Of a stretch of 64,000 nucleotides of DNA, positions 500 through 29,736 are shown piece after piece (positions within the stretch are counted from its first letter, which is position 1; each line of letters opens with the position of its first letter). Under the pieces are notes generated by a model. That model worked only from the letters and a program-made list of their open reading frames with translations. It did not search any database and had not been told where the DNA came from. The DNA lies in contig JANXBW010000023.1 of NCBI GenBank assembly GCA_025060325.1, positions 1-64,000 of the forward strand, written 5' to 3'. Origin of the DNA: Thermoguttaceae bacterium. Lineage in GTDB: Bacteria > Planctomycetota > Planctomycetia > Pirellulales > Thermoguttaceae. The translations under genes and the position numbers were made by a program.

Positions 500-1600
500 A
501 AGGAAAGTCCCGAAATTGGGTTACACCAGCAGCCTAAGACAAGCAGTGACTTCGTTCGATGGCGGGCTCAAATATCCAAAAACCACCAGATTCCGGCGCG
601 TTCATTTTATTTTCAATGGCATTTAACTAACCGATGCAACTTACGATGTCGCCGTTGTTATCAGTCTGCTTTTGACTGCGCTGATCCTCTGGAAGAGGAC
701 GATCTTCGGGTTGCTCGTCAGTTTGAGCAAGCTTTGTGCGTTTGGAAGCGACGCGGTCGCGTGTCCTTAACAGGCGGTGAGCCCTTTCTTGTGGATTCGC
801 GACTTTTCAGACTGTTGGGCTTTTTTGATACATCACCGTCGTTCGAATGGATCGGTATTTTGACCAATGGGACTCTGATCGATGATGCTAGTGTCAACCG
901 GTTGAAGCGGTATGAACGATTGCGCGAGGTTCAGGTGTCGCTGGACGGTGCGAATGAGTCAACTCATGATGCGATTCGAGGTCCTGGGGCCTTCGCTCGA
1001 GCAATCGAAGCAATAGAGCGTTTGGTCCAAGGAGGGATCCCTATTGCAATAATGTTTACGCTGACGTCCCAGAATTTCCGCGAGATTAATGAGTTTTTGA
1101 GGCTCGCAGGGGAGCTTAAAGTAAATGCTATAACAATTGAGCGGATGGTCCCGGCGGGGTCTCACTGTGATAAGCAACTCGTCCCAAGTAAAGAGATAAT
1201 TAAAGACGTCTTTGTGACTGTAGCGCAGAGGAAGAATCGCTTACTCCGGGAACATGGTGTGCTCGTGCGCACTGCCAGACCACTGTGGTGCCTTCTGGGG
1301 GACGAGTTGGGAGGTTATTGTCCCGCCGGCTTGACTAGTTTATGTGTGATGCCAGATGGAACCTTGTTGCCATGTCGGCGGTTAGAAATACCGATTGGAA
1401 ATGTCCTCAAAGATGGACTTTTAAGGTATGGTACACCTCCGAAGTCTTATGGCACCTTCGTTTGCGGATGAATTGGCCCGCGTCCTGCTCCCGGTGTAAG
1501 TTTTTTTGAAAAGTGTGGCGGATGTCGCGCAGTTGCGTATTACAAGACGGGGAACTTTTTGGAGCGGGATCCGGATTGTTGGAATTCGGAGGTTTGTTAA
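500..1600 (+). pseudogene. radical SAM/SPASM peptide maturase, broken by indels
   Basis: The frame open from 500 encodes HLTNRCNLRCRRCYQ, with Cys codons at 635, 647 and 656. This is the CX3CX2C motif that holds the radical SAM iron-sulfur cluster. SLTGGEPF follows near 768, then the TIM-barrel core and the start of a SPASM domain (CPAGLTSLCVMPDG, then PCRRL). The frame breaks near 1424: the expected WYTSEVLWHLRLR continues in the next frame, as does CSRCKFF. A run of seven T at 1501-1507 then shifts again, after which CGGCRAVAYYKTG and DPDCW appear, ending at TAA 1598-1600. No ATG or GTG start lies in frame upstream of the Cys motif. Family knowledge: such enzymes modify RiPP precursors with help from a PqqD-like protein, and both partners follow here. 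At least two single-base shifts make it a pseudogene unless they are sequencing errors in homopolymers. Confidence 0.85.
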
Positions 1601-10595: not shown

Positions 10596-12340
10596 TAGCC
10601 TGCCCTCCTGAGTTCGCCGAATGTCAATGCCAATTCCCCGTTTACGATACCTCGCGAGCCCCCAAAATACAAGCCAGCCTCCAGCCAATACTTGGTCTCT
10701 GTTTCTCAATACTTATGGCCACTCGGAATGCGCCATTTTACTTACCAAGAGCACCCACAGTGTCCAAAACAACCATTGAGCCTCGGTGGGCGTTATCGGG
10801 CACACCTTGGAAGAACTCTCGTTGCGTGGGCACTAGTTTTCCAAACTGGTTATGGAAGCAAGGTCGCCAAGTCCATGGAGAACCAAACCGGCTTTTCGAT
10901 CCCTGTTCGGGGTTTGCCCATTCGACCACTGAACAAGAGCGAAAACAGCTTCAGCAAAAGACACCAGGGGTGTGCATGTGAGGGGTGATCCTAAATAGCC
11001 CCTCCCAAAGCTTCGTGCGAGGTGTGCGCCTTGAGTTCGAAGTGCCAATAGCGAGAAGAAACGGAAAGTTACCTAAATGCTAGCGCAATGGCGTCGGAAT
11101 CCCGTTAGCACCTAACTGGGCAAGCACATCGCTGCATCGGGAGCACAAGCTTTCCAAAAAGAAACGCTCCTATCCTGAGAGAGTGTGTTCAAATTGGTGG
11201 TCCGGCCCATTTTACCTGGCAGATCTCGAAAAACGCAAAAGAAATTCCAGGAGGCATGAGATCTTTAGCTGGTGATGGGAGGTCTGGTTTTTGCTATGAA
11301 GGGTCTAGGCGAACGCTTAGATTAGGAGGCCCGGGTAGTTGAGAATTCAGAAGGTCCAGCTTTTTCTCCAGGTCGATGGGGTCAGCTTTTGAAGGCCGGG
11401 CATGGTCAAAAAGTAGCGTTTTCCTTGTCCCTTATCTAGAATCTTACTTGCGAAGTGGAATCCCCGGCTTTGCGTGGCAGGTTCCCTCTTGGGGTTTGCC
11501 CCCTAAGCAGGATTGGAAGCAAAGCTGGGACCTTCAGTGCCGGTGGTCTAGTGACGGAGGGTCCTCCGGTGATTCCCCCGGTTAAAGGGCAGGCGGTGGC
11601 GCTCGAAACACCCACAGCCGGCAAGAGTCTGCAAGCGCGGCATGGGCAGGCATGGGATGAAGATATTCCCTCCGCCGGGTTGGAGCATCTAAGCCCCCGA
11701 ATCTTCCGAGTCATATTATCCCTTGTTGCTTGGTTGACAAGGCCAAGGAAAGCTCACTCACCGAGGAATTCGGCGTTCAGGCTGGATTCCAATTCGCTCG
11801 CACTCGCCCGGGCTTGTGCCCCTCATGCCGGATCTTGTTACAAACCCGAGTTAGTAAGCACGCTTTCCCCCGAACAATTTCCGCCGAATTTAACCACCTT
11901 ATGTTTTCAAAGAAGCGAATCCTCGCGCCTTCAAAAGCTTCGCAGTTTTCTTGACCTATACAAAGCCCATGCTCAACTGATACGGAGACCGTGGGGTAAC
12001 CACCTTGAGGACTCACGGGTCGCGAAAAATCTTAGTAATGGTTCAAGGTTCTGGCTTGTGTACTCATGTAACGGATCTCTCATCCTTATAAGTTGTCATG
12101 CGATTCTGCTGGTTGGCCTTTACCTCCAAAGTCTTGTCCAGATGGATTGGTTCACCTTTTTCCTGTGGATAGTCTCGGGAGGTTCTTTGTGCGTTTGATC
12201 TCGACCAATTGAGTTTGCAAAGATCGCCTATTGTGCCAGGTCTTTTGTAACAAGAGTTTCAGGCTATTCACTGCTGTTGGGTCTAGGCCTTGTGGACCTT
12301 TTGAGGCAAGCTAAGGCCCGGGACCGCGTGGAGAATGTTG
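10596..12340. other. 1.7-kb intergenic region between divergent loci
   Basis: This gap separates the minus-strand helicase operon from the plus-strand cluster, so promoters for both should lie here. I could not pick convincing -35/-10 pairs by eye. It contains one unusually long ORF (11455-12198, separate entry). Confidence 0.6.
11455..12198 (+). CDS. doubtful ORF, 247 codons, possible two C-terminal membrane helices
   Basis: This is longer than the other ORFs found in non-coding parts of the window. It has an ATG start but no obvious ribosome site and no known motif. The first 150 residues are basic and low in aliphatic residues, unlike a normal protein. Only the last 45 residues, from about SLILISCHAILLVGLYLQ onward, look like membrane helices. 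It may be a chance ORF, a relic, or a small unknown membrane gene at the head of the downstream cluster. Confidence 0.2.
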   Translation: MESPALRGRFPLGVCPLSRIGSKAGTFSAGGLVTEGPPVIPPVKGQAVALETPTAGKSLQARHGQAWDEDIPSAGLEHLSPRIFRVILSLVAWLTRPRKAHSPRNSAFRLDSNSLALARACAPHAGSCYKPELVSTLSPEQFPPNLTTLCFQRSESSRLQKLRSFLDLYKAHAQLIRRPWGNHLEDSRVAKNLSNGSRFWLVYSCNGSLILISCHAILLVGLYLQSLVQMDWFTFFLWIVSGGSLCV

Positions 12341-15085
12341 ATGGCTCCCAGCTTTGATCCCCTAGACTTGGTTCGCCCATTCATCCAAAAGGGCACCACC
12401 GCCGCTTTGGCGGATGCTTTCAAGCAGCAACCTGATTTCTGTTGCACATTCTTCAAACTTGAGAGGCTGGTCGAACTCGTTGAGGAACGTTCCCTATGGC
12501 AAGCTGGCGGCAGAGAGTTTGGACTGCTTCGTGATGAGGTGATCCGACGGTTGTTGATTTCAGGGAATCGGGAGGGCTGGAGAGAGACTGCGATTCGGTT
12601 GCTTCAGGTCGAGGGGGTGGCCGAGGCACCTCTTGCGCGGTTTATCAATCAGTGCTACCACCCCCGTTCCCCCAAACTCGCAGCTACCGAGATAGCATAT
12701 GTGAAAGGGCTTGAAGAAGCTTACCAAAGTTCGAGCTATCTTAAGGAGGCAATTGGCCGGGCTTTAGCTTGGCTTGGAGCTTTGCCTGAAAATGCAAGAG
12801 GCACCCGAGTCCGCGTACTTTTCTCCTGTAAGCGGTTTTACGCTGAATTTCCGACCGTTTTCGTTCCTGCGATCTGCGTTTCGTTCTCTGTGACCCAAGC
12901 ACAGAATCGGATGCCCTCCTTAGATCATGGTGTGGATGGCATCGAAAACAACTTTTGGCACAGTGTACTACAGGCAAAGCGTATAGCCAACGAAATCTGC
13001 GGGTTGAGTACTGGACTCTTAGGTCCTGACGAAGTTTGCACCGAAGGAGGCTCAGCAGTTACGCCTATCTTGAATGGAGCGGAAGCGTATTTCAGCTTTT
13101 TGTTGGCATACGTTTGTCTCGCGAAGGGTATCCCACTTTCGCCCTATTTGGGATTTGTAGGGTTTACTCATGATCGGCAGAGACTGAGCTCAGTTAACCA
13201 CTTCTGGGATAAGATCTCTGCTAGTGTCGATGCCGGCATCCACATTCTTTTTGTGCCCCGCAGCAACCTGCTGGCGTTACCTTCGCAGAAAAAGCAAGAA
13301 GCGTTGCCGCTTCGGTTACTGTCGTATGATGAGCAAATGGACATTAAGGAAGTGGTGAGGGATATATTAAACCAGCTTTTGGTTTTGCAGAAGGATTTAC
13401 CTTTTCTGTCGGTTTCACCTCCCTCCCCAAGTGTCAATCACCCGGTCTGCTGGGGCTCAGGTTTAGATTCCTCCCCAAGCAGTGACGATATCCCGCTCGC
13501 CGAGCCAAAAAAGCTGTTTACGCTGGCCCAACTGGGATGCTTCGTCGAGTGTGGTGGTTATGACGGTTTAGGCTCCCCAGCGAAAATGAGCGCATTTAAT
13601 TCTGAAAATGAATGTTTTCTAACTATCTTTCCAGGGAAGAACCGCGTCTACCGATTTGACGCTTTCGGGGCTTTGTACGAGAAGTTCCGCAGCGAAGCGA
13701 GGCCTCTCTCCATAGTGTGGAATGAGTCACGGCGCGAGTATCTCATCGGCTTTGAGAACCGGCAATTGCGCCGCTTTAATGCTCAGCTTCGAGACACTGG
13801 GATGCTCTCACTCCCTATCGAGCCACGGCTCCTTGCATGTGATGGTGACGATGTTTACGTAAGCGACTACAGTGAAGTGGTTCTCCGAGTGAATATCGGT
13901 AACGAGGATGTCCAACAAGTCAGTCTTGCGGGAAAGGTTGGCCAGCTACTTTTCTTGCAAGGAAGAGGGTGTTTGGTGGTGTCAATTCCAAATTACTTGC
14001 TGGGACTCGACCGACAATTAAAGCCGTTGTGGACGATTCCGCACTTTGCCACCCAAGCGACGGTTGGAGGTTCTCCCTCAGGCGAGATGTGGGTAGCTCT
14101 ATCGTCGGGCTGTGTTTGGCGAATTGACAAAGACAACCAAAAAGTTTTTGAAGTTCCCATCTCGGCATTCATGCGTTGCCTTGTTGTGCTTAGCAAGTTT
14201 GTTGTGGCCGGGACATTATCGGGTCATGTTTTTCTTTTTGATCAATTAGGTCGGAAATTAGGCGAATGTAAGCTCGAGACCTCGCTATACCATATCTGCG
14301 CCACAGAGGGGGATATGCTTGTGCTTTCGACTGCGCGAGGTCCTACGGTGGTTAAGATCCTGCCAATGCTGACGCTTCAGACAAGAGAAGCGCTTGTACA
14401 CGAAAAAGCTCTCGCTACTCTCCTCGAATGGGAACAAGCCGCTTCCTCGGCTCCTTCACTTCATAGGGCGTTACGGGAGAAGCTAAAACGTGTTGACCTG
14501 AACCAGTGGCAAGAAGTCTGGGCGCTACAATTACAGTTCGCCCAAAGGAAACAAGTGCGGCCGGCCCTGTACGAAAAAATCGAAAACGCACTTTATCTAG
14601 TCGATCCATTTAAGGCGGCCAGAATTTGTCAAAAGACAACACCGGCAATCATCGACGGTTCCAATGTTTCCCGACACCATTGGGATCATCAACAGAAAGG
14701 TCCACGACGGGCTCGATTGCAGGCGATCTTGCGCGTCAGGGAGAAATTACTTCAAGAAGTCACCCCCACCTTCTATCCAGTGATAGTCGTTGTTGATGCT
14801 AGCGAACGGATGTATACGGATGACTTACCAACCCTCAAACGAATGATCGACGAAGGCGAGATTCTCGAATGTCCCTCGCGCAGGGAGGCTGATGCCCTCA
14901 TTTTGGACTTGGTTCGCACTCACCGATGGATGGATTGCGTCATTGTGTCGAATGACCGGCGATTATTTCAGATGCATGGTCGAATGCTTCCCGAGGCCAA
15001 TGAGCGTTGGTACGACCGCGTACGAGTCGCGTTCACCATCAACCCGAAGACACTTGAAGTTTACTTTCCCGAAAGGAGCGTTTAA
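12341..15085 (+). CDS. Lon-like fold / beta-propeller / NYN-PIN ribonuclease-like protein (914 aa)
   Basis: The ATG at 12341 has GGAG seven bases upstream; the earlier ATG at 12335 is too close to it. Residues about 155-310 resemble the Lon proteolytic-domain fold (GIPLSPYLGFVGF, then WDKISASVDAGIHILFVP). A Lys matches the dyad lysine, but the serine position seems to be Glu in my hand alignment. About 385-715 is a run of short beta repeats typical of a propeller. The C-terminus from about 766 is a Zc3h12a-like NYN/PIN domain: IIDGSN (D772), READAL (D851) and SNDRRL (D872) give the acidic metal site. Family knowledge predicts metal-dependent RNA cleavage. Its stop overlaps the next start (TAATG), and it is first in the long cluster, so it may be the effector. 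Confidence 0.75.
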   Translation: MAPSFDPLDLVRPFIQKGTTAALADAFKQQPDFCCTFFKLERLVELVEERSLWQAGGREFGLLRDEVIRRLLISGNREGWRETAIRLLQVEGVAEAPLARFINQCYHPRSPKLAATEIAYVKGLEEAYQSSSYLKEAIGRALAWLGALPENARGTRVRVLFSCKRFYAEFPTVFVPAICVSFSVTQAQNRMPSLDHGVDGIENNFWHSVLQAKRIANEICGLSTGLLGPDEVCTEGGSAVTPILNGAEAYFSFLLAYVCLAKGIPLSPYLGFVGFTHDRQRLSSVNHFWDKISASVDAGIHILFVPRSNLLALPSQKKQEALPLRLLSYDEQMDIKEVVRDILNQLLVLQKDLPFLSVSPPSPSVNHPVCWGSGLDSSPSSDDIPLAEPKKLFTLAQLGCFVECGGYDGLGSPAKMSAFNSENECFLTIFPGKNRVYRFDAFGALYEKFRSEARPLSIVWNESRREYLIGFENRQLRRFNAQLRDTGMLSLPIEPRLLACDGDDVYVSDYSEVVLRVNIGNEDVQQVSLAGKVGQLLFLQGRGCLVVSIPNYLLGLDRQLKPLWTIPHFATQATVGGSPSGEMWVALSSGCVWRIDKDNQKVFEVPISAFMRCLVVLSKFVVAGTLSGHVFLFDQLGRKLGECKLETSLYHICATEGDMLVLSTARGPTVVKILPMLTLQTREALVHEKALATLLEWEQAASSAPSLHRALREKLKRVDLNQWQEVWALQLQFAQRKQVRPALYEKIENALYLVDPFKAARICQKTTPAIIDGSNVSRHHWDHQQKGPRRARLQAILRVREKLLQEVTPTFYPVIVVVDASERMYTDDLPTLKRMIDEGEILECPSRREADALILDLVRTHRWMDCVIVSNDRRLFQMHGRMLPEANERWYDRVRVAFTINPKTLEVYFPERSV

Positions 15086-16890
15086 TGAAGGAGCAGGAGA
15101 GGGGGATTCTGTGTACGCGATGCGGCTGTAAAAACGAGCCCGCGGCCAGGTTCTGCGTCGACTGCGGAATGGAGCTTTGTTTCGCAGATGGGACAACCAT
15201 TGCAGCACCAGCGCCGCAAAAGCGCCACGTCGTCCTGGCACAATCGTTGTCTTCGAGGGATTTAGATCGATTATGGAATGTTTTTGAAATTGCCCAACAA
15301 AGTGGCTATTTCCTCGGTACTGTCCTTTGGCCGGATGAAGATGAGGATAGAGGATCGCTCGCACAGGAATTGCCCGAAGGCACCGTTTTATTGTCGGAGG
15401 TTCGCGACAGTTGTCAATTAGGAGAGCCAACGCCCGGTTGGCTTGACGTTGTGACCGAGTTGGGATCGGCGATTGATGAACTTCACCGCCTCGGGTGCCG
15501 GCTAAATAGCTTTGGGTTTAACTCCATCCTAGTTCAGGAGGCTACTTTGGGCTTTTCGGGCCTGTGCCTGCCGATCAGTCTTAGTTTTTTAGACACCCCC
15601 CGAAGCGAAATGAGTCCGCTCGGGATCGATTGCCGCTTTGCTTCGCCAGAAGTTCAGGGGTACGTGGACTACCCAGTAGGTTGCGCTTCAGATGTTTATA
15701 ACTTGGCCGTCCTCACGTATTACTTAATGAGCGGCGCAGTGCCCCAGGATTTGGTTAAGTGTGAGTTTCGCCTTGCATTAGAAAAGACCGACCTCGGGCC
15801 GGCAGTTCAGACCTGCTTGGAAGAGGCGTTAGCAATCGACCCCGCATTCCGACCATCTTCTGCTAGAGAGTTTGTAAAGCGATTAAGGGCGGCGCTTGCC
15901 ACAGATGCTTGCCGGCAGGGATTGGTGATCGAGGGAGCGTTGCAGACAGACATCGGTATCGGGGGACGGGAGAATAACGAAGATGCTTGTGGGCTTTGGA
16001 TCTGCTCCAAGACCGACGGCCATGGCTTAAGTTCGTTAGGCGTAGTGGCCGTGGCCGATGGAATGGGTGGCAGTGCCTTCGGGGAGCGCGCCAGCTCCTT
16101 CTGCATCGAGCACGTCCTAGAAAGTGCCAAGGATAACTTGCGGATTCTTGGCGGGGCTTTGGCTTTTCCAGACAACTGGAGAACTGCTTGCCAAGAGTGG
16201 CTCCTGAGGCTGAACCAAGAAATAACCGATTTAGGCAGGAACCTCGGGGTTCCCCACGATTTTGGATCAACATTTACTGCCGTTTTGTTTCTCGGACGCC
16301 GAGCCTTTCTCTTACATGTGGGTGATTCCCGACTATACATAGTCCGCAATTCGACGATCTCCCAGGTAACTTGCAGTCAGACTTATGCAGAGCAGCTATT
16401 CGAAGAAGGTCAGCTAACACGCGAAGAAGCCGACGCGAGCATGTACCGCCACGTGCTCACGAGTTTTCTGGGAACATCCAAGTGCAGGCCTCAAGTTGAA
16501 GAGCTGCAGTTGCAGAGCGGAGATGTACTTGTGCTGTGTACGGATGGCCTGATGGAGGGACTTAGCCCAGAGGATGTGAGAGAGATCGCTTGCCGCTTTC
16601 CCCCGCCTTTGGCTGTTGCCGAAATGATACGGCAGTGCAAAGACCGTTTACAGAACGCCATTTCACAGCAGCAGGATTCATCTGGCCCGGAGAGCGACAA
16701 CATTACGGTGAGTGTGATTCGGGTTTGGTGTCCCGGCCCATCCAATGGATTAGCAGAAAAAGTAGGACGGGAAAGTGCAGCAAGTGAGCAGGCCGAGCCA
16801 GATAACTCAGATAGGTTTGGCAGTGAGGTGGCGGAAGGAGGAAGTCATGCCCGATCCACAGATGACTATGGAAGTCCACATCCATCCTAA
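15085..16890 (+). CDS. zinc-ribbon / pseudokinase / PP2C phosphatase (601 aa)
   Basis: A zinc ribbon opens the protein (C10, C13, C24, C27). Residues about 50-275 look like a Ser/Thr kinase fold without its catalytic core: the HRD loop is replaced (RLNSFGFNSI) and DFG is absent, while the SPE and SDVYNLAVLTYYLMSG segments remain. From about 283 to 547 is a PP2C-type metal-dependent phosphatase: NNED (D300), ADGMGG (D325), FGSTFTAVL, CTDG (D487) and ESDNIT (D538), so the metal ligands are in place. It should remove phosphate from Ser/Thr of partners, presumably those modified by the two kinases downstream. AAGGAG precedes the ATG. It overlaps the upstream stop and its own end overlaps the VWA gene by 44 bp. 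Confidence 0.9.
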   Translation: MKEQERGILCTRCGCKNEPAARFCVDCGMELCFADGTTIAAPAPQKRHVVLAQSLSSRDLDRLWNVFEIAQQSGYFLGTVLWPDEDEDRGSLAQELPEGTVLLSEVRDSCQLGEPTPGWLDVVTELGSAIDELHRLGCRLNSFGFNSILVQEATLGFSGLCLPISLSFLDTPRSEMSPLGIDCRFASPEVQGYVDYPVGCASDVYNLAVLTYYLMSGAVPQDLVKCEFRLALEKTDLGPAVQTCLEEALAIDPAFRPSSAREFVKRLRAALATDACRQGLVIEGALQTDIGIGGRENNEDACGLWICSKTDGHGLSSLGVVAVADGMGGSAFGERASSFCIEHVLESAKDNLRILGGALAFPDNWRTACQEWLLRLNQEITDLGRNLGVPHDFGSTFTAVLFLGRRAFLLHVGDSRLYIVRNSTISQVTCSQTYAEQLFEEGQLTREEADASMYRHVLTSFLGTSKCRPQVEELQLQSGDVLVLCTDGLMEGLSPEDVREIACRFPPPLAVAEMIRQCKDRLQNAISQQQDSSGPESDNITVSVIRVWCPGPSNGLAEKVGRESAASEQAEPDNSDRFGSEVAEGGSHARSTDDYGSPHPS

Positions 16891-18103: not shown

Positions 18104-18111
18104 ACACAACA

Positions 18112-18975
18112 ATGAAGATTCTCAGGCAAATCTACTTTTGTGGTGTCTCGGGAGCTTTGGGCGCGCTTGTGGCCTGGTTGGTGGTCGGGTGGACAAACCC
18201 CGCAAGCTGGAGGCACCTCTGGCTTTCCAATGCTTTCGTTGGGGGAAGTCTCGGTGGGTTGATCACCATTGCCTTGGTGTGTACACGCGGCTGGGTACAA
18301 CAATGGACCTATAGCCGCATTCTCCGGACCGTAAGAAACGGGTTTATCTGTGGTTCCATTGGGGGTGCCGTGGGATTAATTTTAGGGCAAGTCGCTTTCA
18401 TGTGGATTGGAGGAGAATGGCTTGGGCGTGGAGTAGGCTGGGGCATGCTTGGACTCTTGGTTGGGTTGGGCCAGTCGCTCGGTGACCCCTCTGTACGAAG
18501 ATGTGCGGTGGGCGCCGGCGGGGGCGCCGCCGCTGGCCTATTCGCCGGGTGGATTTACGAGATCTTGACTCAACTTTTCCTCTTTCAGAGTGTCACGGCA
18601 CAACTGTGGGCATCAAGCTTTGGACTTATGGCAGTCGGTGGAATCTTGGCAGCGGGTATTCCTTTCGCCGAAAAACTGGCTGCGCGGGGTGTACTGGTCG
18701 TCCTTTCAGGTCAGAGGCGTGGGACAGAGCACCTCATCTTGGATAAGCTCCTTGTGGGGAGGAGTGAGTCCTGCCAAGTTGTCATAAGCGATGATGGCGA
18801 GCTTGAGCCCGAACAGCTTGCGCTCGAAGTGTGTCCAGAAGGAATCCGTGTTTCGAATGTTGGTCAGTGGCGTTCCGTGTTAGTTAAGGGCGAGACTTTG
18901 CCACCTGGTGCAGCCGCGGTTTGTCCCTCCGGAGCGCTTATCCACGCGGGCAAAACGGGATTGAGGGTTCTCTGA
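18112..18975 (+). CDS. Gly-rich membrane protein with FHA-like tail (287 aa)
   Basis: The gene starts 8 bp after the VWA gene. The first 195 residues hold about six hydrophobic, glycine-rich segments (for example GALGALVAWLVVGW at 14-27 and GWGMLGLLVGLGQ at 109-121). The cytoplasmic tail, about 198-287, resembles an FHA fold: LLVGRSESCQVVISDD corresponds to the first strands, but the SRRH and NGT residues that grip phosphothreonine are not evident. Similar membrane-FHA proteins accompany kinase/VWA clusters. Probable role: membrane anchoring of the complex (inference). Its TGA overlaps the next ATG (TGATG at 18973-18977). Confidence 0.75.
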   Translation: MKILRQIYFCGVSGALGALVAWLVVGWTNPASWRHLWLSNAFVGGSLGGLITIALVCTRGWVQQWTYSRILRTVRNGFICGSIGGAVGLILGQVAFMWIGGEWLGRGVGWGMLGLLVGLGQSLGDPSVRRCAVGAGGGAAAGLFAGWIYEILTQLFLFQSVTAQLWASSFGLMAVGGILAAGIPFAEKLAARGVLVVLSGQRRGTEHLILDKLLVGRSESCQVVISDDGELEPEQLALEVCPEGIRVSNVGQWRSVLVKGETLPPGAAAVCPSGALIHAGKTGLRVL

Positions 18976-21280
18976 TGGGCCGAGTCAGCATCGTCCTTCT
19001 CTTGAGCTTGCTGGTGTGGGCAAGCGGCACCGCCAGCACTTTAGGACAGGGTGGTAGAGTCGATATCACCCAGGTCGATATCACCCGGTTTCCGGAAGTG
19101 ACTGTGTTTTTTAGGGTACTCGATTCTAGTGGGAAAAGCCTTGGGCAACTCTGTTGTGACAAAGTTGATGTCGAGGAGGACGGAAGGCGCGCCAGGATTC
19201 TGCAAATTCTCGATAAGGGATCTTTTCCGATTACGACGGCGTTAGTTGTGGATTGTAGCGGTAGCATGGCAGATGCAGTAGCAGGGGCTACGAAACTTGA
19301 CGCAGCAAAGAAAGCTTGTCATGAGTTTTTGAAACTCTCCCGACCTACGGACAAAAATTGCCTTATTCAATTTAACACTGTCGCTACAGTTGTTTGTCAG
19401 TTTGAGGCACCACTCGATCATTTACATCGATCGGTAGATGCTCTGCAAGCGGGGGGTAACACCGCCTGGCGTGATGCGGTGGTTGAGGCCTTAAACATGC
19501 TTGCGGTTCGACAAGGCCGAAGGAGTGTCATCCTTCTGACCGACGGGCAAGATAACAGCAGCGTGCGGAGCATCGCCTTGGTGATAGAAAACGCACGGAA
19601 GATTCAGGTTCCCGTATATGCAATCGCACTAGGAGAGTATCACCAAATTGATGAAAGGGAACTGCGTCAACTCGCTCAGGAGACCGGGGGTAGTTACCTC
19701 CTAATGCCCTCCCCGGCGCAGTTGGCTCAGCTTTATGAGGAAATGGCCAAGTCCTTGCAAGAGGAAGTGGCGGTAACTTACATAACGAATCGACCTTACC
19801 CTGACGGGACTCGTCGGAGGATTCGACTGTCGGTGCAGATCGGGAGCACGGTGTTCTCCGGCGAGGGCTCATACCTTGAACCCCATGTGTTAAACCCCGG
19901 ATCTCACTTCGGCGTTTTCCTCTTCTGGTTAGTTGTTCTGGGCCTTTGCTATGCCGGTCCGTTTGCACTTGATGCACATCGGAAGCAAGCGTTCCGACGT
20001 GCCTGTAAAGAGGCCTTCAGAGAGGAATCTGATGAAAACAAGGTCGTCTCCGCACTTTTACCAAGAGGGGAGTTAGTAACCCAAGTCCATCCGAAGGCCG
20101 TCCTTCGGGAAGCAGCTCCCCGGGTCGTCTCGGTGCGAATTGATACTATCCTCCGGCCACCCGAAGGAACCACTATCCTCCATCAACCGCTCCATCTAAT
20201 TGTTTTGCTCGATTTAAGCGCCTCCATGGAGGGAGAACGGTTGATCGCCGCTTATTCCGCTATCGAGTCTTTAGTGGGCGGAATGGCGAACCGAGACTCC
20301 TTCTGCCTCGTCGGTTTCAGCGATACCGCATCACTGGTAGTGCCGCCAATTCGTATACAATCGGGTCGCAAGCTTATCCTGTCCCAACTAAAAGACTTGT
20401 CCACGGGAGCTAGAACAATCCTGGCTCCCGCACTTGAGATGGTCCCCTCTTTGTTACCGCCAGCGCGATCTTCAAATCAACGCAGGACTTGCGCAGTGAT
20501 TGTCTCTGACGGCATGATCGAGGACCGGTTCCCAGCTTTAGAGACGGCAAGCAACTCAGCGGCCGAGTGGAAATCTATGCCATGGGCATCGGCGCCGACT
20601 ATGACCATGAACTCCTCGCGGATCTTTGCGGTGACAAACACAAAGTGGACCACCTGGATACGGCCCAGGAAGCGGCAGGTGCCTTCGAAAGATTCATGAG
20701 ATTATTTGGGCACACGGTGACGGCTCGGACGCGGTTGCGATTTCGAACCTCATCGGGCGTAATCCTGAAGAGTGTGACTGCTCAACGATACGCTAAAGAT
20801 CTTCCGATTGTCAACGATACAGTTACTGTGGGAGATTTAACCCCTTTGGGAGCCTTAACTTACTTAGCGGAGTTCGAGTTTTGGCCTAGCACGAGGGGGA
20901 CCATTGTTCTCGGAAGTTGTGCTCTTGTTTTCGATTTACCGGCGTATGGCAAATCAGATTGTGAAAGTGAGACTTCTCTAGTAGTAGAAGTAACCGAGGA
21001 TCCCGCTCGCGCCAATGTGCCCAATCCCGAAGTTGTGCGGGTGGCCCGGACCATTCAAGCAATCAAACTGGCGGAGAAGGCTGAAGAACACCTTCGCAGC
21101 GGTGATCTCCGGACGGCCACTCAAAAACTTAAGCAAGCGACTCGCCGTTTGGAAGAATTAGGTGAACAAGAAAAGGCCCGAGCCTTAGACCAGTTACGCG
21201 ACCGGATTGAGGCAGAACCGGAAAACACCGACCTCGGAATAAAGCGTATCCGTGGGACAACCAAGCGTTTAACCGAATGA
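18975..21280 (+). pseudogene. double-VWA membrane protein, frameshifted near 20566
   Basis: A signal peptide (VSIVLLLSLLVWASG) precedes an exported VWA domain with MIDAS DCSGS (D93-S97) and LLTDG. A membrane helix spans about 312-332, then a cytoplasmic VWA domain follows with DLSAS (D413-S417). The frame breaks after about residue 530: the continuation EIYAMGIGADYDHELL lies in another frame from about 20567 and runs to 21280. The first VWA gene has the same layout at this point (YAGGIGEDYDHAFLEKL), so the two ORFs were one gene of about 768 codons. A single lost G in GAG-GTG-GAA would explain it. The tail IKRIRGTTKRLTE matches the paralogue at 16847. If the shift is real, the cytoplasmic VWA half is lost; if it is a sequencing error, the gene is intact. 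Confidence 0.85.
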
Positions 21281-21296
21281 AAAGAAGGAGTCCGCC

Positions 21297-22148
21297 ATGC
21301 CTCGCTGCCCCTACTGCGATGCCGAGTATACGCTCGGGGAGTTGTACTGCAAAAGCTGCAACGAAGATTTGAGTTCCATCGATGTGCCACCAACTCCCCC
21401 GGTGGCGGAGCCGGAGGAAGGGGGCCCAGCCTGGGAAGGGGAGGCACTGCCGGAAGTTGCCTCCACGCTTTCCGGCCAAGAAAAAGTTGAGGAACCTATT
21501 GCCAGCGAAATTCCTGAGGTGCCTCGGCCCTCTTTGCCACCGGTTCATACACCAGCCGGGATTCCGGATTCGTTGGCTCCTCCACCAGTTCCTGAACCCC
21601 TGGGGCCGGTGTGTCCGTCATGCGGAAGGCCAAACGAGAGAGAGTCCAGATTCTGTGACAATTGCGGTCAGCCATTAGGAAGGACGTGCCCTTCGTGTCA
21701 AGGGGCCAATCGTCCTGGAGCCAAGTTTTGCCAACATTGTGGTTCTCGGCTGGGCGGGCCCCCAAGTGCTGCGCCTCCACCCGCCTCCCCCATGAGGCAG
21801 GCGGTTCAGGCAGTTCCCTCTCACTCGTACATGCTAGTAGTGTACAGCAAGGACGGCCGGGAATTAGGAAGGTTTCCACTTCGCGAAGGCGTTAACCAAG
21901 TGGGAGCGCAATCCCCTGGAGAGGGAATCTTTCCCGATGTAGATCTTAGCCGCGTAGACAATCAGCACATTATAAGTCGGCGGCATGCGGTAGTGCGAGT
22001 AACAAGGCATCAAGTGACTATCGCAGACTGTGGATCAACGAATGGTACCTATGTTGACGGAAAGCGGATCTCAACAGAAGAAGTTGCTGTGAACGAAAAT
22101 AGCAGCATTAGTTTTGCCAATATTCATGCCAAATTGGTGCGGGGTTGA
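21297..22148 (+). CDS. zinc-ribbon FHA protein (283 aa)
   Basis: GAAGGAG precedes the ATG. There are three zinc-ribbon-like Cys clusters (residues 4-21, 106-123 and 131-148) with a Pro/Glu-rich linker between the first and second. The C-terminal FHA domain, about 195-282, has the phosphothreonine-binding signatures SRRH (227-230) and STNGT (247-251). It should read Ser/Thr phosphorylation made by the cluster's kinases and could recruit partners to them. The zinc ribbons are of the same double-CxxC type as those in the PP2C and kinase proteins, which ties these genes together. Confidence 0.92.
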   Translation: MPRCPYCDAEYTLGELYCKSCNEDLSSIDVPPTPPVAEPEEGGPAWEGEALPEVASTLSGQEKVEEPIASEIPEVPRPSLPPVHTPAGIPDSLAPPPVPEPLGPVCPSCGRPNERESRFCDNCGQPLGRTCPSCQGANRPGAKFCQHCGSRLGGPPSAAPPPASPMRQAVQAVPSHSYMLVVYSKDGRELGRFPLREGVNQVGAQSPGEGIFPDVDLSRVDNQHIISRRHAVVRVTRHQVTIADCGSTNGTYVDGKRISTEEVAVNENSSISFANIHAKLVRG

Positions 22149-22250
22149 AACCTCAAGCTGGGCGTGACGGAAACAGTGCTATCCGATCGTTGTCAAAGGT
22201 AGGTGTTGACTTTACTAAGCTCCTGGCCTAGGGATAACAGGGGCATCCAC

Positions 22251-25200
22251 ATGCAGCAGGATAACTTAATCGGTCAGACCATCGCCGGTTACCGAATTGT
22301 GGGGGTTCTGGGCGAAGGTGGGATGGGACGCATTTACTTAGGGGAGCAAAACGGGATAAAAGCGGTAATAAAGAAGCAATTGGACGGTGACCCAGAAACG
22401 CTCCTTCGTGAAGCAAGGTTTCTAGCAGCTCTAAAACATCCGCATCTCCCTCAGGTACTCGATTTCGAAAAGGGGTTCATGGTGATGGAGTTTGTGGAGG
22501 GTAAAACCCTCGAGGAGCATATCGAAAGTTTAAAACAAAATGCCGGATGGAATACTCAAGAAGCTTATCTTCGCCAAGTCGTGGACTGGGGCCTCCAGAT
22601 GGCCGATGTCCTCCATTATCTGCACAGCCAAAAGCCGTACCCTATCGTCCACCGCGATATCAAGCCCTCCAACATCCTTCTTCGTCCGAACGGCCAGCTC
22701 GTGCTAATTGACTTTGGGATCGCTCGTCGTGTTGACCCTGAAAAGCTGGCGAAACGGATCAAAGATACCTGTCCTGCCGGCACCGAAGGGTACATGGCGC
22801 CGGAGTTCGTCACATTCCAAATCTCGGACCCACGGTGCGATATCTATTCGCTAGGTGTTGTGCTTCATTATTGGCTATCTGGGGAGCAACCTGATCCCAC
22901 CGGCCAAAAACGGCTCAGTAAATTAACCCGCACTGGAGACCTACTTTGGGACACTTTGGTCGAAATATCGGAAAAGTGCCGACATCCGGAGCCCACCAAG
23001 AGGTACCAAAGTGCTGTTGAACTAGCAGCAGCTTTGCGGCGACTTGCGAAAGATGATAAGGACCAGGAGATTCGCGAGAAGAAATGCGTTGTGTGCCAAG
23101 CCGTGGTTCGAGCAAGCTGCCGATTCTGTCCGACATGTGGAAGCACGTTCACGGACACCACCCGGGCTAGTTCACAAGCCGTTCAGTTAAATGTCAGTAT
23201 TGCTTCCGAAACCTCCTCAGTAATGAATGCGATTCTCGACGCCGCTATTAAAGGGCAGGTAGCTTCCCTCGAACATTTTCGAGCTTACCAAAGACTCTTG
23301 GAGCTCGAGCAAGACCCAGGCTTCAGCGAGCTTGTCTCTCTTGAATGCTTACCCCGAATAGAAAAACTGCCTCATCAAATTGAGGCGGTAAAGACGGCCT
23401 TAGGCAAAATGGGCGGTTACTGTCTTTTAGCTGACGAAGTGGGCCTCGGCAAGACAATCGAGGCAGGAATCATCATTAAGGAACTTCTGTTGCGAGGCCT
23501 TGTACGACGCATTCTCATCCTTACCCCACGCGCCCTTTGTACCCAATGGCAGCAAGAGCTATTCGAAAAGTTTGATGTCTTCTTTTTGGTCTTTGGTCGC
23601 GACGTGGACTATAGCCTTGCATGGGAATGCGACCGGGTGATCGCTCCGTACGAGACCGTAGAGGACCGATTTCATAGACAGGGCATTCTCGGTCGAAGAT
23701 ACGATCTTGTCATTATGGACGAAGCGCATCATTTGATCGGGGAGACAGATCCGCGACGAAGCTGGATGTTGACTGAGTTTGCTCGAATACTCGGCCGTCA
23801 AACCACATATTTCCTGATGCTCTCAGCCACTCCTTTACACAACGATCTTAAAGAATTGCACACATTATTGACTCTTCTCAAGCCGGGATCAGTTGATGAC
23901 TTCAACCGGTTTAAGGAGAGGTATATAGACCCCAATGATCCCTACAAACCGAAAAACGTGGAAGAACTGCGGCAGCGGCTGCAATCAGTAATGATTCGCA
24001 ACACTCGCCGGCGGGTAGCAGAGTTACCTTTTCCGCGGCGTATGGCGTTTCGTGTCCCTGTGCAATTAAGGCCCGAACAACAACAGCTTTTTCTTGAATT
24101 CCGGACTTTTGTCCGCAGTCGTCTTTGGCAACTGAATACGGAAAACGCCTATTTCCGTCGTTCGCTACAGATCTTGGTCGAGAGTTTTCATAGTTCGCCA
24201 ACTGCTTTCGCCTCCAACTGCAACGGATTTATCCGCTCATTCCGCAACATATTACAATCAGATGTATTGGAAACCCTAAGGAACTTTCAGCGCCGGATGA
24301 GGTTAGACCTCCTTGCCGAAAAATTTTCTCAAACCGTTTCCATCTTGCAACAACTAACAACCAACTTCGATAACAAAGTACTTGTGTTTACAGAATATGA
24401 GGACACAGCGGAGTTACTTTACCGGAAAATACACGGCGCGGGATTATCAGTGGTTAGATATCCAGGTGAGGACGTAGATGATGATGGCCAGCAAGCATTG
24501 GATGCGCTAAACGCCTTCTATCGGTTTGCTCGGGTCATGGTGTGCACCCAAAATGCCGCAGAGGGACTCAATTTGCAATTTGCCAACTGTTTAGTGAATT
24601 TCGACCTTCCGTGGGATCCGATGAAGCTGGAGCAACGTATAGGCCGGATCCAACGAATTGGTGGTAAGCCAAAAGTCTTTATTTACAATGTGTTTCTCCA
24701 AAGGACCGTCGAAGAAGATATCCTGGAGGTTCTGGAAAAAAAGATTGAAATGTTCGGGGAAACAATCGGGCAGGTAGAAGAGATTCTTGGCAATCTGGCA
24801 GAAGATGAGAGCTTTGAACAAATCTTCCTCGACCTTTTTGCGGGAGAGGACCGCCAAAGTTTAGAGCAGAAGATTAACCAAATGGTAAACCGTAGTAAGG
24901 AAACCACAGTTGCCGATGAGATCCTTGCAGCGATTTTTGAAGAGGGAGCCCCGTCGGAACGCACACCTAGAGGCAGAGACCTGAAAAGTTATTCTCCTCC
25001 CCCCGCAGCGTGCCCAAACTGTCGCCAGATGGTCGTGCCGGGCGCAAAGTTCTGCGACAACTGTGGTTGTTTGTTGGTGGCGGAGGCTCAGCCGGAGATC
25101 GAACCTAGTCATTCCCTGCCTGAATTTCCGCAGACTCCTCAGGACAAATTAGAAACGAAACGCTGTAGGGCTTGTAAGACCGAGCTATTACCCAACGCCC

Positions 25201-25340
25201 AATACTGCGACAACTGTGGCGAGGCGCAGACCGATTCGTCTCCAGTCGCAGTGAACAATAACTTTTGTCCAGATTGCGGAAATGAAATCCCCGGCGGGGC
25301 TTCGTTTTGTGATGCCTGTGGACATAGGGTTCGCCTATGA
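22251..25340 (+). CDS. Ser/Thr kinase - SNF2 helicase - zinc-ribbon fusion (1029 aa)
   Basis: The N-terminal kinase (about 10-265) has all catalytic parts: GEGGMG loop, VIKK lysine, HRDIKPSN (134-141), DFG (154-156) and APE (183-185). A zinc ribbon (C279, C282, C290, C293) links it to an SNF2/RapA-like ATPase: DEVGLGKT (395-402), DEAH (490-493), LSATP, then QRIGRIQRIG (795-804). Three zinc ribbons close the protein at about 921-940, 972-990 and 1006-1023. SNF2 proteins translocate on double-stranded DNA. Direct fusion to an active kinase is rare and suggests that DNA engagement and phosphorylation are coupled. I chose the ATG at 22251 because it sits just before the kinase fold; the ORF also opens at 22203. 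Its stop overlaps the next start (ATGA). Confidence 0.93.
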   Translation: MQQDNLIGQTIAGYRIVGVLGEGGMGRIYLGEQNGIKAVIKKQLDGDPETLLREARFLAALKHPHLPQVLDFEKGFMVMEFVEGKTLEEHIESLKQNAGWNTQEAYLRQVVDWGLQMADVLHYLHSQKPYPIVHRDIKPSNILLRPNGQLVLIDFGIARRVDPEKLAKRIKDTCPAGTEGYMAPEFVTFQISDPRCDIYSLGVVLHYWLSGEQPDPTGQKRLSKLTRTGDLLWDTLVEISEKCRHPEPTKRYQSAVELAAALRRLAKDDKDQEIREKKCVVCQAVVRASCRFCPTCGSTFTDTTRASSQAVQLNVSIASETSSVMNAILDAAIKGQVASLEHFRAYQRLLELEQDPGFSELVSLECLPRIEKLPHQIEAVKTALGKMGGYCLLADEVGLGKTIEAGIIIKELLLRGLVRRILILTPRALCTQWQQELFEKFDVFFLVFGRDVDYSLAWECDRVIAPYETVEDRFHRQGILGRRYDLVIMDEAHHLIGETDPRRSWMLTEFARILGRQTTYFLMLSATPLHNDLKELHTLLTLLKPGSVDDFNRFKERYIDPNDPYKPKNVEELRQRLQSVMIRNTRRRVAELPFPRRMAFRVPVQLRPEQQQLFLEFRTFVRSRLWQLNTENAYFRRSLQILVESFHSSPTAFASNCNGFIRSFRNILQSDVLETLRNFQRRMRLDLLAEKFSQTVSILQQLTTNFDNKVLVFTEYEDTAELLYRKIHGAGLSVVRYPGEDVDDDGQQALDALNAFYRFARVMVCTQNAAEGLNLQFANCLVNFDLPWDPMKLEQRIGRIQRIGGKPKVFIYNVFLQRTVEEDILEVLEKKIEMFGETIGQVEEILGNLAEDESFEQIFLDLFAGEDRQSLEQKINQMVNRSKETTVADEILAAIFEEGAPSERTPRGRDLKSYSPPPAACPNCRQMVVPGAKFCDNCGCLLVAEAQPEIEPSHSLPEFPQTPQDKLETKRCRACKTELLPNAQYCDNCGEAQTDSSPVAVNNNFCPDCGNEIPGGASFCDACGHRVRL

Positions 25341-27712
25341 GTACGGGTTTCGGGACCCGAACGAAGGAAATTCAAGAAATAGTGTTGACCTACTTCCAGT
25401 CCTGGGGTAGTGAGGCGGAGGTGCGGCCAAAGCCAAACCTTCCCAGTGCCGTTGACGTCGTTTTGCGAGGGGCTCTTGCACATCGCTTTGAGACGGTTTC
25501 CGTTCCGGACAAGGGACAACCTAACACGCGATTGTTACGTTTATTGTTTGACCGAACCTTCGCATCAAGCGCGCCGGGTTACGAACTTGTCGTGCCCCGG
25601 AGTCACCTGCTTCGGCTAATCCGAAACGACCTGGCCACTCGAGCAAGTTTCACCCGTGCTGGCATTCTTCTTAACTTAGAGGAGAGTTTTGCCGACCTGG
25701 AGGCGATGGGTGTTGTTATTCGATATGCAGCCCCAGAGGCAACCTCTCGCTATGTTTTTCGGCGCTTCTATGCCGTGCGATATATGTTGCGGCAATCTGC
25801 TTACGAGCGCTTTGAGGACATTGTGCTGATCTTGGTGGACCCGGATAAAGGAGTTGTGCTGTCAGCGGTTGAGGCAGCGAAATTTGCCGAACTTAATCTT
25901 GTTGATTACAACCGCGCGCCCTATCGAGATAAGATCTTTCTTACCCCGCCCACGCGGGATTACCTGTTGCGCGTGTTCCAGTTGGCTGAGGATGTTGCCA
26001 AGAAGCGTGCGGCTGAAACGCTAAGTAAGCGGGCAAATGAATTATATCAAAAGTTACAAGAAGAATGTCATCGCGTATCGCGACATTATGAGGCCGAGAT
26101 GAAGGACGCCAGCCCTGCCCGCTGCCGCGAATTGGAAAAGCTCCGGGATCAAGAACTTCGGGAGTTACAGCAGCGCTACCAAATTCACTGCGAACTTGAA
26201 CTTCTTTCGCTTGAAGAGATCGTTGTTCCTCTTGTGGAATACACCCTTTCAATTCCAAGGCCCTCACCTGCGAAGTTAGCCCAGGTTTTTGTGTTCGATC
26301 CCCTCACCAATATCGTCAACACCACCAATTGTGCGAAATGCAAACAGCACCTTTCCTGGGCATATTGCTCTCGGGGTAAGCACCTAGAGTGTGCGAAGTG
26401 TGGGGCGGTTGAGCCATGCTGCCACCGTGACTGCGGGCTAGGCTTTTGCCCCGCGCATGGGGTACGGTGTAAGCAATGCTCTAGAATGATTTGTGAGAAT
26501 CATGAGGTGGCATGTAGCTACTGTATGAGCGATCGGCGTTACTGTGCGGACCATATTCTGCGGAGCTTCGAAGGACGGTATATCTGCCCCGAGTGTGCCC
26601 GCTTCTGCGGAGAATGTGGTCAAGCTTTCCCGCCAAAACGTTCGACGAAATGCATAGTTTGCTATCAGGATTTTTGTGATGTGCACTCCTTGGTTTGTCC
26701 TTCGTGCGGTCAACATCATTGCCAAAAACATGGTGCTACTCCGCGTTTTCGCACACAGGTTTTTTGTCATCACTGCCTTTCTCGTTGTGGGTTTTGCAAA
26801 GACGATCTTTGCTACTTAAAAGCCGATTTGATGCATTGTACTGAGTGTGGGACCTCGGTTTGCCCTGACCACCTTAAGACTTGCGTCTCTTGCAAGAGTG
26901 GACTTTGCCCAACGCATGCCCTGTCCACTTCAAGTGGAGATGGGTGTGCTGCCTGCTTTGCCTATTGCCGCAGTTGCGGCAAGATCGCCCATCGTTCGCA
27001 CTTGAAGCACTGTCATTTTTGTCCACGAAATGATCAAGGCCTCCACTGTGGTACGCATCTCAGACAATGCGATCTTTGTCGGGCTTTTACATGCGACGTA
27101 CATAGGTATCAGTTGGCCGACGGGCGTCAGGCGTGTCCGTCCTGCTCTGTCGCGTGCGCTGTATGTTCCCGCAGGTTTGCACACAACCAACTTGTCAATT
27201 GCCGTAAGTGCCGACTGCCGGTTTGTTCCGAAGATAGCGTTTGCTCCCAATTTCGGAATGAAGTCTATTGTTTAGCCGACGCTCAAAATTTTGTTCAGTG
27301 TGGTGGATGTGACCGAAGGGGGCCTCAATCCCAACTTGAGATCTGTACCCTTTGTAACATGCCATACTGTCCTCACTGCATACCAAACGGAAAGGACACG
27401 CGTTGCATTTACTGCGATAACCTCCGGCCTATTCGAAGTGCAAGCGAGCTGGGCGGTTGGTACCAAGCAGTGTACTCGAATCCATTGTCAAACCTGTCTG
27501 CATCACATCGGAAAGAAATCATGAGGGCTCTAACAAGCTTGGACACATGCTTTTCGTTCACGGCAACTGAAACCGCACAATACTATATCCTGTGCGCAAC
27601 ATGGAAGTCGGGCATAAGAAATTTCTTTCGCAAATGGTTCTGGAGCGTCAAGGGCTTCGTGTTAGTACGGGACAAACATTCCTCTCAGCTCAAAGTGAGG
27701 ATTAACCCGTGA
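25337..27712 (+). CDS. coiled-coil protein with giant Cys/His zinc-binding array (791 aa)
   Basis: I do not recognise a named family. The first 210 residues are globular, about 215-295 is a charged coiled coil, and about 332-690 is packed with CxxC, CxxH and HxxC pairs. These alternate like RING or B-box treble-clef fingers (for example CGECGQAF, CIVCYQDFCDVH, CPSCGQHHCQKH). That is enough for roughly ten or more zinc sites. The last 90 residues carry a basic patch but no Cys cluster. Its start overlaps the kinase-SNF2 stop (ATGA at 25337-25340), so it is probably made in fixed ratio with that helicase and acts as scaffold or nucleic-acid reader. RING-like ubiquitin ligase activity is possible by shape only; no E1 or E2 gene is seen here. 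Confidence 0.75.
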   Translation: MSTGFGTRTKEIQEIVLTYFQSWGSEAEVRPKPNLPSAVDVVLRGALAHRFETVSVPDKGQPNTRLLRLLFDRTFASSAPGYELVVPRSHLLRLIRNDLATRASFTRAGILLNLEESFADLEAMGVVIRYAAPEATSRYVFRRFYAVRYMLRQSAYERFEDIVLILVDPDKGVVLSAVEAAKFAELNLVDYNRAPYRDKIFLTPPTRDYLLRVFQLAEDVAKKRAAETLSKRANELYQKLQEECHRVSRHYEAEMKDASPARCRELEKLRDQELRELQQRYQIHCELELLSLEEIVVPLVEYTLSIPRPSPAKLAQVFVFDPLTNIVNTTNCAKCKQHLSWAYCSRGKHLECAKCGAVEPCCHRDCGLGFCPAHGVRCKQCSRMICENHEVACSYCMSDRRYCADHILRSFEGRYICPECARFCGECGQAFPPKRSTKCIVCYQDFCDVHSLVCPSCGQHHCQKHGATPRFRTQVFCHHCLSRCGFCKDDLCYLKADLMHCTECGTSVCPDHLKTCVSCKSGLCPTHALSTSSGDGCAACFAYCRSCGKIAHRSHLKHCHFCPRNDQGLHCGTHLRQCDLCRAFTCDVHRYQLADGRQACPSCSVACAVCSRRFAHNQLVNCRKCRLPVCSEDSVCSQFRNEVYCLADAQNFVQCGGCDRRGPQSQLEICTLCNMPYCPHCIPNGKDTRCIYCDNLRPIRSASELGGWYQAVYSNPLSNLSASHRKEIMRALTSLDTCFSFTATETAQYYILCATWKSGIRNFFRKWFWSVKGFVLVRDKHSSQLKVRINP

Positions 27713-29718: not shown

Positions 29719-29736
29719 ATTCGAACGAGGTGGGCA

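What the first reader, a model, noticed from the sequence alone, without database searches (positions are those of the whole stretch)
22251..25340. Active Ser/Thr kinase fused to an SNF2 ATPase and four zinc ribbons
All catalytic motifs of both enzymes are present (HRD, DFG, APE; GLGKT, DEAH, QRIGRIQRIG) in one 1029-aa chain. This would let DNA translocation control phosphorylation, or the reverse. Such a fusion is unusual among bacterial proteins I know.
Basis: partly seen in the sequence, partly recalled or inferred. Interest (0 to 1): 0.82.

Follow-up and report, generated by a model that had tools for sequence, protein, structure and literature searches.

The report
Kinase-fused half of split RapA motor
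A planctomycete protein joins a protein kinase to a DNA motor; the motor looks like only the front half of a RapA-type machine whose back half is encoded by the next gene, inside an operon of protein-phosphorylation genes.

Summary
In detail: window 22251-25340 is one 1029-aa frame with an intact-looking Ser/Thr kinase, a SNF2 ATPase and four zinc ribbons. It is not an assembly join: a full-length homologue (56% identical, residues 3-1029) lies in another planctomycete. The interpretation needs changing. The SNF2 part aligns to RapA 141-684. The first 300 residues of the next gene's product (25337-27712, 4-base overlap) are predicted to fold like RapA 703-968 (five RapA entries, Z 9.3-12.6). 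So the motor appears split over two genes, with kinase and ribbon where RapA has its N-terminal domain. The split pair is widespread: 53 of 61 SNF2 loci examined have the partner within 1 kb downstream. The partner has no Pfam or NCBIfam match over cut-off. The kinase fusion is rare: 4 of these 61. Six genes of the operon recur in the same order in the second genome, though two window genes are missing between them there. Best reading: a phosphorylation-controlled RapA-type translocase, more likely for stress or anti-invader response than RNA polymerase recycling. That function is inferred. New variant of a known kind.

The parts
22251..25340 (+). Ser/Thr kinase - zinc ribbon - RapA-type SNF2 ATPase core - three zinc ribbons (1029 aa)
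22290..22985 (+). Pkinase domain, aa 14-245, catalytic motifs present
23238..24926 (+). SNF2 core, aa 330-892; counterpart of RapA 113-684
   Evidence: sequence, from RapA 113; structure, 8t0l_F: model 358-892 to RapA 141-684, 469 residues
25011..25319 (+). three C-terminal zinc ribbons, aa 921-1023
25337..27712 (+). 791-aa partner; its ATG overlaps the end of the kinase-SNF2 gene by 4 bases (ATGA)
25337..26326 (+). partner domain, aa 1-330; predicted fold of RapA 703-968 (Spacer and CTD)
26330..27415 (+). cysteine-rich, probably zinc-binding array, aa 332-693; 64 Cys and 26 His in aa 335-791
21297..22148 (+). zinc ribbon - FHA protein
   Evidence: 34% homologue directly before the kinase-SNF2 gene in L009
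16847..18103 (+). vWA protein (ATG chosen by me; frame opens at 16775); C-terminal part of a homologue in L009, 54%
15085..16890 (+). zinc ribbon (below cut-off) - kinase-like fragment without D.K..N motif - PP2C phosphatase
18112..18975 (+). hydrophobic N-terminal part (read by eye) - FHA-like domain; not seen in L009
   Evidence: (Yop-YscD_cpl below cut-off)
18921..21280 (+). double vWA protein, reading frame changes near 20567-20699; not seen in L009
27709..29718 (+). second Ser/Thr kinase - zinc ribbon (below cut-off) - TPR; HRD replaced by VAD, DFG and APE kept
   Evidence: 35% homologue in L106
29737..31599 (+). HEAT-like and DnaJ-type zinc-finger protein (both Pfam matches just below cut-off)
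   Evidence: 51% homologue in G089 only, of 8 genomes
12335..15085 (+). 916-aa protein with a possible C-terminal NYN/Zc3h12a RNase domain; membership of the system unproven
   Evidence: PF11977 E 0.0013, below cut-off; no match in 8 genomes, no positive control

Best explanation
The kinase-SNF2 protein and the product of the next gene assemble into one RapA-type DNA translocase whose two halves are encoded by two overlapping genes. In the front half the place of RapA's N-terminal regulatory domain is taken by an active Ser/Thr kinase and a zinc ribbon. The back half carries a long zinc-finger array for contacts with proteins or nucleic acids. The kinase phosphorylates itself, the motor or operon partners. 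The FHA-zinc-ribbon protein reads the mark, the PP2C protein removes it, and vWA, STK-TPR and zinc-ribbon proteins scaffold the complex, so phosphorylation sets whether the motor runs. The most likely job is surveillance or clearance of foreign or damaged DNA; clearing stalled RNA polymerase is the alternative. Shown by computation: catalytic motifs present, the gene pair, the predicted RapA fold of the partner, and partial operon conservation in a second genome. Inferred: kinase activity, physical assembly, direction of control, substrates, biological role.
For: RapA is the best solved relative of the SNF2 part by sequence (E 6e-34, window 330-557 to RapA 113-345 and 701-838 to 497-635; profile E 7.4e-77). 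The structure comparison extends this to RapA 141-684 over 469 residues. The partner model (pLDDT 85.8) has only two Foldseek matches under E 0.001, both RapA. VIA ranks five RapA entries first (Z 9.3-12.6, 235-248 residues, RapA 703-968), the next, unrelated row at Z 7.2. The two halves tile RapA. 53 of 61 SNF2 loci have the partner within 1 kb downstream on the same strand. 16 of 16 loci scanned, fetched after the profile was made, carry it. The same profile finds nothing in the 1.5-kb surroundings of other SNF2 and kinase loci of this genome (L071 is the window locus itself). In G089 the order vWA, FHA, STK-SNF2, partner, STK-TPR, HEAT-zinc holds across two contigs that end and begin at partner residues 539 and 536. 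[quoted passage not shown] Defence leaning: best PADLOC match BrxHI|BrxHII; DUF1156 annotated near the SNF2 gene in 7 of 9 haloarchaeal plasmid loci read.
Against: No experiment shows assembly or kinase control. The full-length model is modest (pLDDT 69.5, pTM 0.51), and kinase-motor contacts were not assessed. Other SNF2 ATPases score as high as or higher than RapA on the SNF2 part in structure (Z 24.6-26.3 against 24.7). The RapA match of the partner has rmsd 4.6-5.5 and 10-17% identity. Its profile against PDB sequences gives RapA only weakly (E 0.044 and 0.11, two of eight rows), and against seven one-chain alphaproteobacterial SNF2 proteins gives probability 10%. PMC8501970 itself reports that deleting the N-terminal domain raised ATPase activity only slightly. 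The L009 contig lacks the FHA-like and double-vWA genes between vWA and FHA, and shows no PP2C because it ends. Kinase fusion and the vWA/PP2C/FHA set are absent from most loci of the pair, so the pair does not need them. No methylase or BREX ATPase showed among the ten operon proteins scanned (the listing is capped at 25 rows for two of them). No background rate was computed for DUF1156 near haloarchaeal loci.
Confidence: 0.55

Rival explanations
1. A kinase-regulated RNA polymerase recycler: the complex does RapA's known job on stalled or post-termination RNA polymerase, tuned by phosphorylation, and has nothing to do with defence.
For: RapA is the top solved relative of both halves: by sequence for the front half, by fold for the back half.
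Against: The pair is patchy and often plasmid-borne; same-genus G424 has no match to the fusion or to the HEAT-zinc protein. BrxHII and related defence helicases share the RapA architecture (PMC12839542 section 27), so the fold does not decide.
Confidence: 0.25
2. The motor controls the kinase: DNA binding or translocation switches the kinase on and sends a phospho-signal to the FHA proteins, so the protein is a DNA-structure or invader sensor.
For: Kinase fused in cis to the motor; FHA, PP2C and a second kinase in the operon. Downstream of the L067 kinase-SNF2 gene lies a HerA-like ATPase with an FHA domain.
Against: Nothing in sequence or model tells the direction of control.
Confidence: 0.3
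3. The fusion only tethers two unrelated activities (shared localisation through zinc ribbons), with no allosteric link.
For: Zinc ribbons recur in four operon proteins (over cut-off in 21297-22148 and 22251-25340, below it in 15085-16890 and 27709-29718). The L060 fusion shows no zinc-ribbon match in Pfam.
Against: The whole architecture is kept at 54-56% identity between two distant planctomycetes.
Confidence: 0.15
4. Assembly error joining two genes.
For: None found.
Against: Independent full-length homologue with the same motifs and ribbons; further kinase-SNF2 frames in L060 and L067.
Confidence: 0.01

Closest known systems
RapA (HepA), RNA polymerase-associated Swi2/Snf2 ATPase
   Same: SNF2 core by sequence and structure; Spacer/CTD fold predicted in the partner
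   Different: Two chains instead of one; N-terminal domain replaced by kinase and zinc ribbon; zinc array on the back half; 179.2 bits against NCBIfam RapA cut-off 576
BrxHII and BREX-related (BR, DUF499/DUF1156) helicases, PADLOC BrxH / HmaA, DISARM DrmD
   Same: RapA-like architecture (PMC12839542 sections 27 and 29 read); best PADLOC and NCBIfam matches; the unfused pair occurs near DUF1156 genes in haloarchaea
   Different: No methylase, BrxC or DUF499 ATPase seen in the window operon proteins scanned; the helicase is split; NCBIfam scores far below equivalog cut-offs
TerY-P phosphorylation triad (vWA, PP2C, kinase; recalled) and the vWA-PP2C-kinase-zinc-ribbon genes linked to GAP1-N2 systems (Kaur 2020, PMC7159879, passages read)
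   Same: vWA, PP2C, kinase and zinc ribbons in one operon
   Different: Kinase fused to a SNF2 motor; FHA proteins and RapA-like partner added; GAP1-N2 components were not searched for
PglW / MAD6 / DndF kinases of defence systems
   Same: Ser/Thr kinases inside DNA-targeting systems (PMC12839542 passages; NCBIfam and PADLOC MAD6 matches)
   Different: In the passages read, PglW and DndF kinases follow a NERD nuclease domain, not a SNF2 motor; NCBIfam scores below cut-offs

Membership tests
RapA | Swi2/Snf2 ATPase core | tested here: met
RapA | Spacer and C-terminal domain after the core | tested here: met
   present as a predicted fold, but in the next gene
RapA | N-terminal domain (two beta-sheet subdomains) before the core | tested here: not met
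   RapA sequence alignment starts at RapA 113; the N-terminus is kinase and zinc ribbon
RapA | NCBIfam RapA equivalog score | tested here: not met
   179.2 bits, cut-off 576
RapA | binds RNA polymerase | not testable with these tools
   needs pull-down
BREX / BREX-related system helicase | methyltransferase and BrxC or DUF499 ATPase in the locus | tested here: not met
   none listed among the ten operon proteins scanned with PADLOC (listing capped at 25 rows for two proteins, rest of the window not scanned)
DISARM DrmD | NCBIfam equivalog score | tested here: not met
   224.6 bits, cut-off 610
TerY-P triad (features recalled) | vWA + PP2C + Ser/Thr kinase gene set | tested here: met
TerY-P triad (features recalled) | TerY-type vWA | tested here: inconclusive
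   no PADLOC match to the vWA proteins; whether the library holds a TerY model was not checked

The most novel reading that the evidence does not exclude
A widespread, unannotated split form of RapA exists in Bacteria and Archaea as a two-gene, often plasmid-borne cassette. Planctomycetes have, perhaps twice, put it under a built-in protein kinase, in one lineage with dedicated phosphatase, phosphopeptide readers and zinc-finger scaffolds, making a phosphorylation-switched DNA translocase used in anti-invader defence.
Probability: 0.25. Interest if true: 0.8.

Novelty: new variant of a known kind. Interest (0 to 1): 0.6.

Why it matters
I know of no other bacterial Ser/Thr kinase wired directly into a SNF2 motor, and my paper searches showed none. 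If control runs through the fusion, it gives a simple two-protein test of how phosphorylation gates a Swi2/Snf2 translocase. The split-RapA partner, present beside 53 of 61 SNF2 genes examined and without a Pfam or NCBIfam match over cut-off, would give a function-linked name to 'hypothetical proteins' in Bacteria and Archaea. It could also let defence-system searches find split BrxHII-like helicases.

Tried and rejected
Assembly error: rejected by the full-length homologue. L020 as a third copy: rejected, same contig as L009 (G651 gives the same coordinates). The first ORF picker chose antisense frames in GC-rich loci and was replaced by six-frame profile searches. One-chain alphaproteobacterial SNF2 proteins as proof of a fused form: probability 10%, E 0.0031. 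Partner profile against PDB sequences: weak only. SNF2 tree: window and L009 pair at 100/100; L060 is a long branch and L067 was left out, so one or two origins of the fusion is not settled there. Kinase tree: the window kinase (as L001) pairs with L009 at 100/99, and L060 (as L042) with L067 at 96/92, which favours two lineages; but it has 12 rows, and my group label left out the window copy and L042, so its change counts are not used. Insertion site not mapped. GC of the operon (0.519) is close to the left flank (0.522), right flank 0.565: no clear island signal. Viral contigs: no relative confirmed (one pattern scan). The 916-aa gene: no match in 8 genomes, no positive control. Other phyla (Actinomycetota, Cyanobacteriota chromosomes and so on) were not surveyed for the fusion.

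Rows not examined: of 40 matching genomes, 31 were read as loci; of 25 plasmid records (9 of 18 haloarchaeal ones); of 27 genomes, nine new loci plus the window; of 8, six. The genome searches scored 2-3 candidates per genome.

Eight exceptions to the pair: L028, L032, L045, L057 and L061 are one genus (g121; partner 3.0 kb away in L061, a partner-like gene 12.6 kb away in L057), plus L034, L068 and L081. L028, L032, L034 and L045 hold only 1.0-1.5 kb after SNF2.

Full report
Observation. The frame 22251-25340 is real and complete. Pfam places a protein kinase at residues 14-245, a SNF2 domain at 375-638, Helicase_C at 697-804 and zinc ribbons.

Not an artefact. A pattern scan of one genome per GTDB species confirmed 11 relatives, of which one, L009 (Planctomycetota MAG RA.bin53), matches residues 1-1028. 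A sample of 392 genomes of the phylum gave 40 with a match at E 1e-45 or better, of which only the window genome and G089 match over the full length. G089's contig and L009 are the same. In the window's own class, 27 of 297 genomes match at E 1e-40, none but the window over the full length, and G424 of the same genus has no match. In 249 genomes of the phylum of Sphingomonas corticis (Pseudomonadota), 8 match, none over the kinase part. These searches scored only 2-3 candidates per genome. No plasmid record covers 80% of the query (0 of 25 matching), and no viral contig was confirmed as a relative. Two further kinase-SNF2 frames exist at low identity: L060 (G173, Pfam-confirmed) and L067 (G084, where the SNF2 part changes frame). 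In 12 genomes of G173's class only G173 itself matched the L060 protein. The kinase tree pairs L060 with L067 and the window with L009, so two fusion lineages are likely but not proven.

The next gene completes the motor. Reading the neighbourhoods of plain SNF2 relatives showed a second gene right after SNF2 again and again. A profile built step by step from these genes matches the window's cysteine-rich protein 25337-27712 at residues 71-334 (E 1.8e-62). Across 61 distinct loci (31 Planctomycetota loci including the window, 9, 6 Pseudomonadota, 15 plasmids), 53 have this partner within 1 kb downstream on the same strand. All 16 loci scanned, fetched after the profile was finished, carry it. 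Of eight plasmid loci fetched before that but after the profile, seven carry it; L081 is the miss. In the control (other SNF2 and kinase loci of this genome with 1.5-kb flanks, and the whole window) only the window partner matched, once directly and once through L071, which is the window locus again. Partner proteins have no Pfam or NCBIfam match over cut-off (five and four proteins) and no PADLOC match below E 0.01 (six proteins).

What the partner is. AlphaFold2 with 38 aligned sequences gave a good model (pLDDT 85.8, pTM 0.67). Foldseek gives two matches below E 0.001, both E. coli RapA. VIA-align puts five RapA entries on top, Z 9.3 to 12.6 over 235-248 residues, RapA residues 703-968; the next, unrelated row is Z 7.2. 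Identity is 10-17% and rmsd 4.6-5.5, so the fold is supported but the detail is not. The SNF2 part matches RapA best among solved structures by sequence, and by structure aligns to RapA 141-684 with 469 residues at Z 24.7, where other SNF2 ATPases reach 26.3. The two chains thus tile RapA. PMC12839542 (section 27 read) describes the same C-terminal pair of domains in RapA and BrxHII: a degenerate restriction-endonuclease-like fold, then a beta sheet with two long inserted helices. The secondary structure of the partner model (helices 207-255 and 260-280 before strand 284-306) fits that description. No invariant column exists in the partner alignment; only R246 reaches 90%, so no nuclease active site is conserved.

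What the kinase replaces. RapA's alignment with the window begins at RapA residue 113, window residue 330. RapA's N-terminal domain contacts the ATPase core; PMC8501970 (abstract and passages) calls it autoinhibitory, though the same paper found only a slight effect of its deletion. Kinase and first zinc ribbon occupy this place in the chain. That is why gating of the motor by the kinase is my preferred reading; it is an inference from position.

The operon. Ten genes on one strand, 12335-31599, several overlapping: 916-aa protein with a possible NYN RNase end (below cut-off), PP2C with a sub-threshold zinc ribbon, vWA, FHA-like protein, double vWA with a frame change, zinc ribbon-FHA, kinase-SNF2, partner with zinc array, second kinase with TPR, HEAT/DnaJ-type zinc protein. 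In G089 two contigs hold vWA (its end), FHA, kinase-SNF2 and partner to residue 539, then partner from residue 536, kinase-TPR (35%) and HEAT-zinc protein (51%). There the vWA gene, closest to the first window vWA (54% against 40%), is followed directly by FHA, so the FHA-like and double-vWA genes of the window are missing between them; the contig ends before any PP2C could show. The HEAT-zinc protein was found in G089 only, of 8 genomes tried. By my profiles PP2C occurs in the window only, FHA in the window and L009, vWA in the window and, 8 kb from the pair, in L083; Pfam added an FHA domain on a HerA-like ATPase downstream in L067.

Role. In cyanobacteria, haloarchaea and one alphaproteobacterium the unfused pair lies on plasmids. 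Seven of the nine haloarchaeal loci read (of 18 matching records) have an annotated DUF1156 protein within about 9 kb, three of them also an annotated DUF499 protein. The L082 DUF1156 and L084 DUF499 proteins match PADLOC HmaB and HmaC (E 9e-37 and 6.6e-18). PMC12839542 (section 29 read) describes DUF499-DUF1156-SNF2 loci as BREX-related defence systems; a word search of that paper for 'split' found nothing. The other two haloarchaeal loci carry a cysteine-rich long partner and an annotated restriction endonuclease. This favours a DNA-directed defence or stress role over RNA polymerase recycling, but no background rate was computed, and no methylase or BREX ATPase showed among the ten window operon proteins scanned.

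Literature. In the listings of searches (open-access library; one search listed 10 of 335) I saw no description of a kinase-SNF2 fusion or a split RapA; I read passages or sections of six papers only. A 2005 survey of prokaryotic kinase architectures (PMC1262709, word search) contains neither 'helicase' nor 'SNF2'. Kaur 2020 (PMC7159879, passages) mentions zinc-ribbon kinases with PP2C and vWA genes next to GAP1-N2 systems. A planctomycete proteome paper (PMC8567305, passages) mentions RapA homologues without kinases. PADLOC's Hma is from PMC8565338 (passages). The TerY-P triad is cited from memory.

Verdict. The finding is sound and somewhat more interesting than stated: a kinase-fused front half of a split RapA-type motor in a phosphorylation operon. 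It is a new variant of known kinds, with function inferred.

Noticed in passing
window 18921-21280: The double-vWA gene is split by a frame change near 20567-20699; the second frame continues the same protein. Real mutation or assembly error cannot be told.
   Followed up: partly
window 12335-15085: First gene of the operon may end in a Zc3h12a/NYN RNase domain (PF11977 E 0.0013, below cut-off); a possible effector.
   Followed up: partly
L083 frame 10224-14357; L104 10617-13904: Haloarchaeal plasmids encode SNF2 followed by a long cysteine-rich partner (46 and 36 CxxC after the partner domain) and an annotated restriction endonuclease, like the window's zinc-array partner.
   Followed up: partly
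L067 16306-18390: A HerA-like ATPase carrying an FHA domain lies downstream of the L067 kinase-SNF2 gene.
   Followed up: no
L028, L032, L045, L057, L061 (one genus, g121): Here the partner was not found directly after SNF2; in L061 it is 3.0 kb away, in L057 a partner-like gene is 12.6 kb away.
   Followed up: no
window near 31600: GC content steps from about 0.52 to 0.565 at the right end of the operon.
   Followed up: no
window 27709-29718: Second kinase has VAD in place of HRD while DFG and APE are kept.
   Followed up: no
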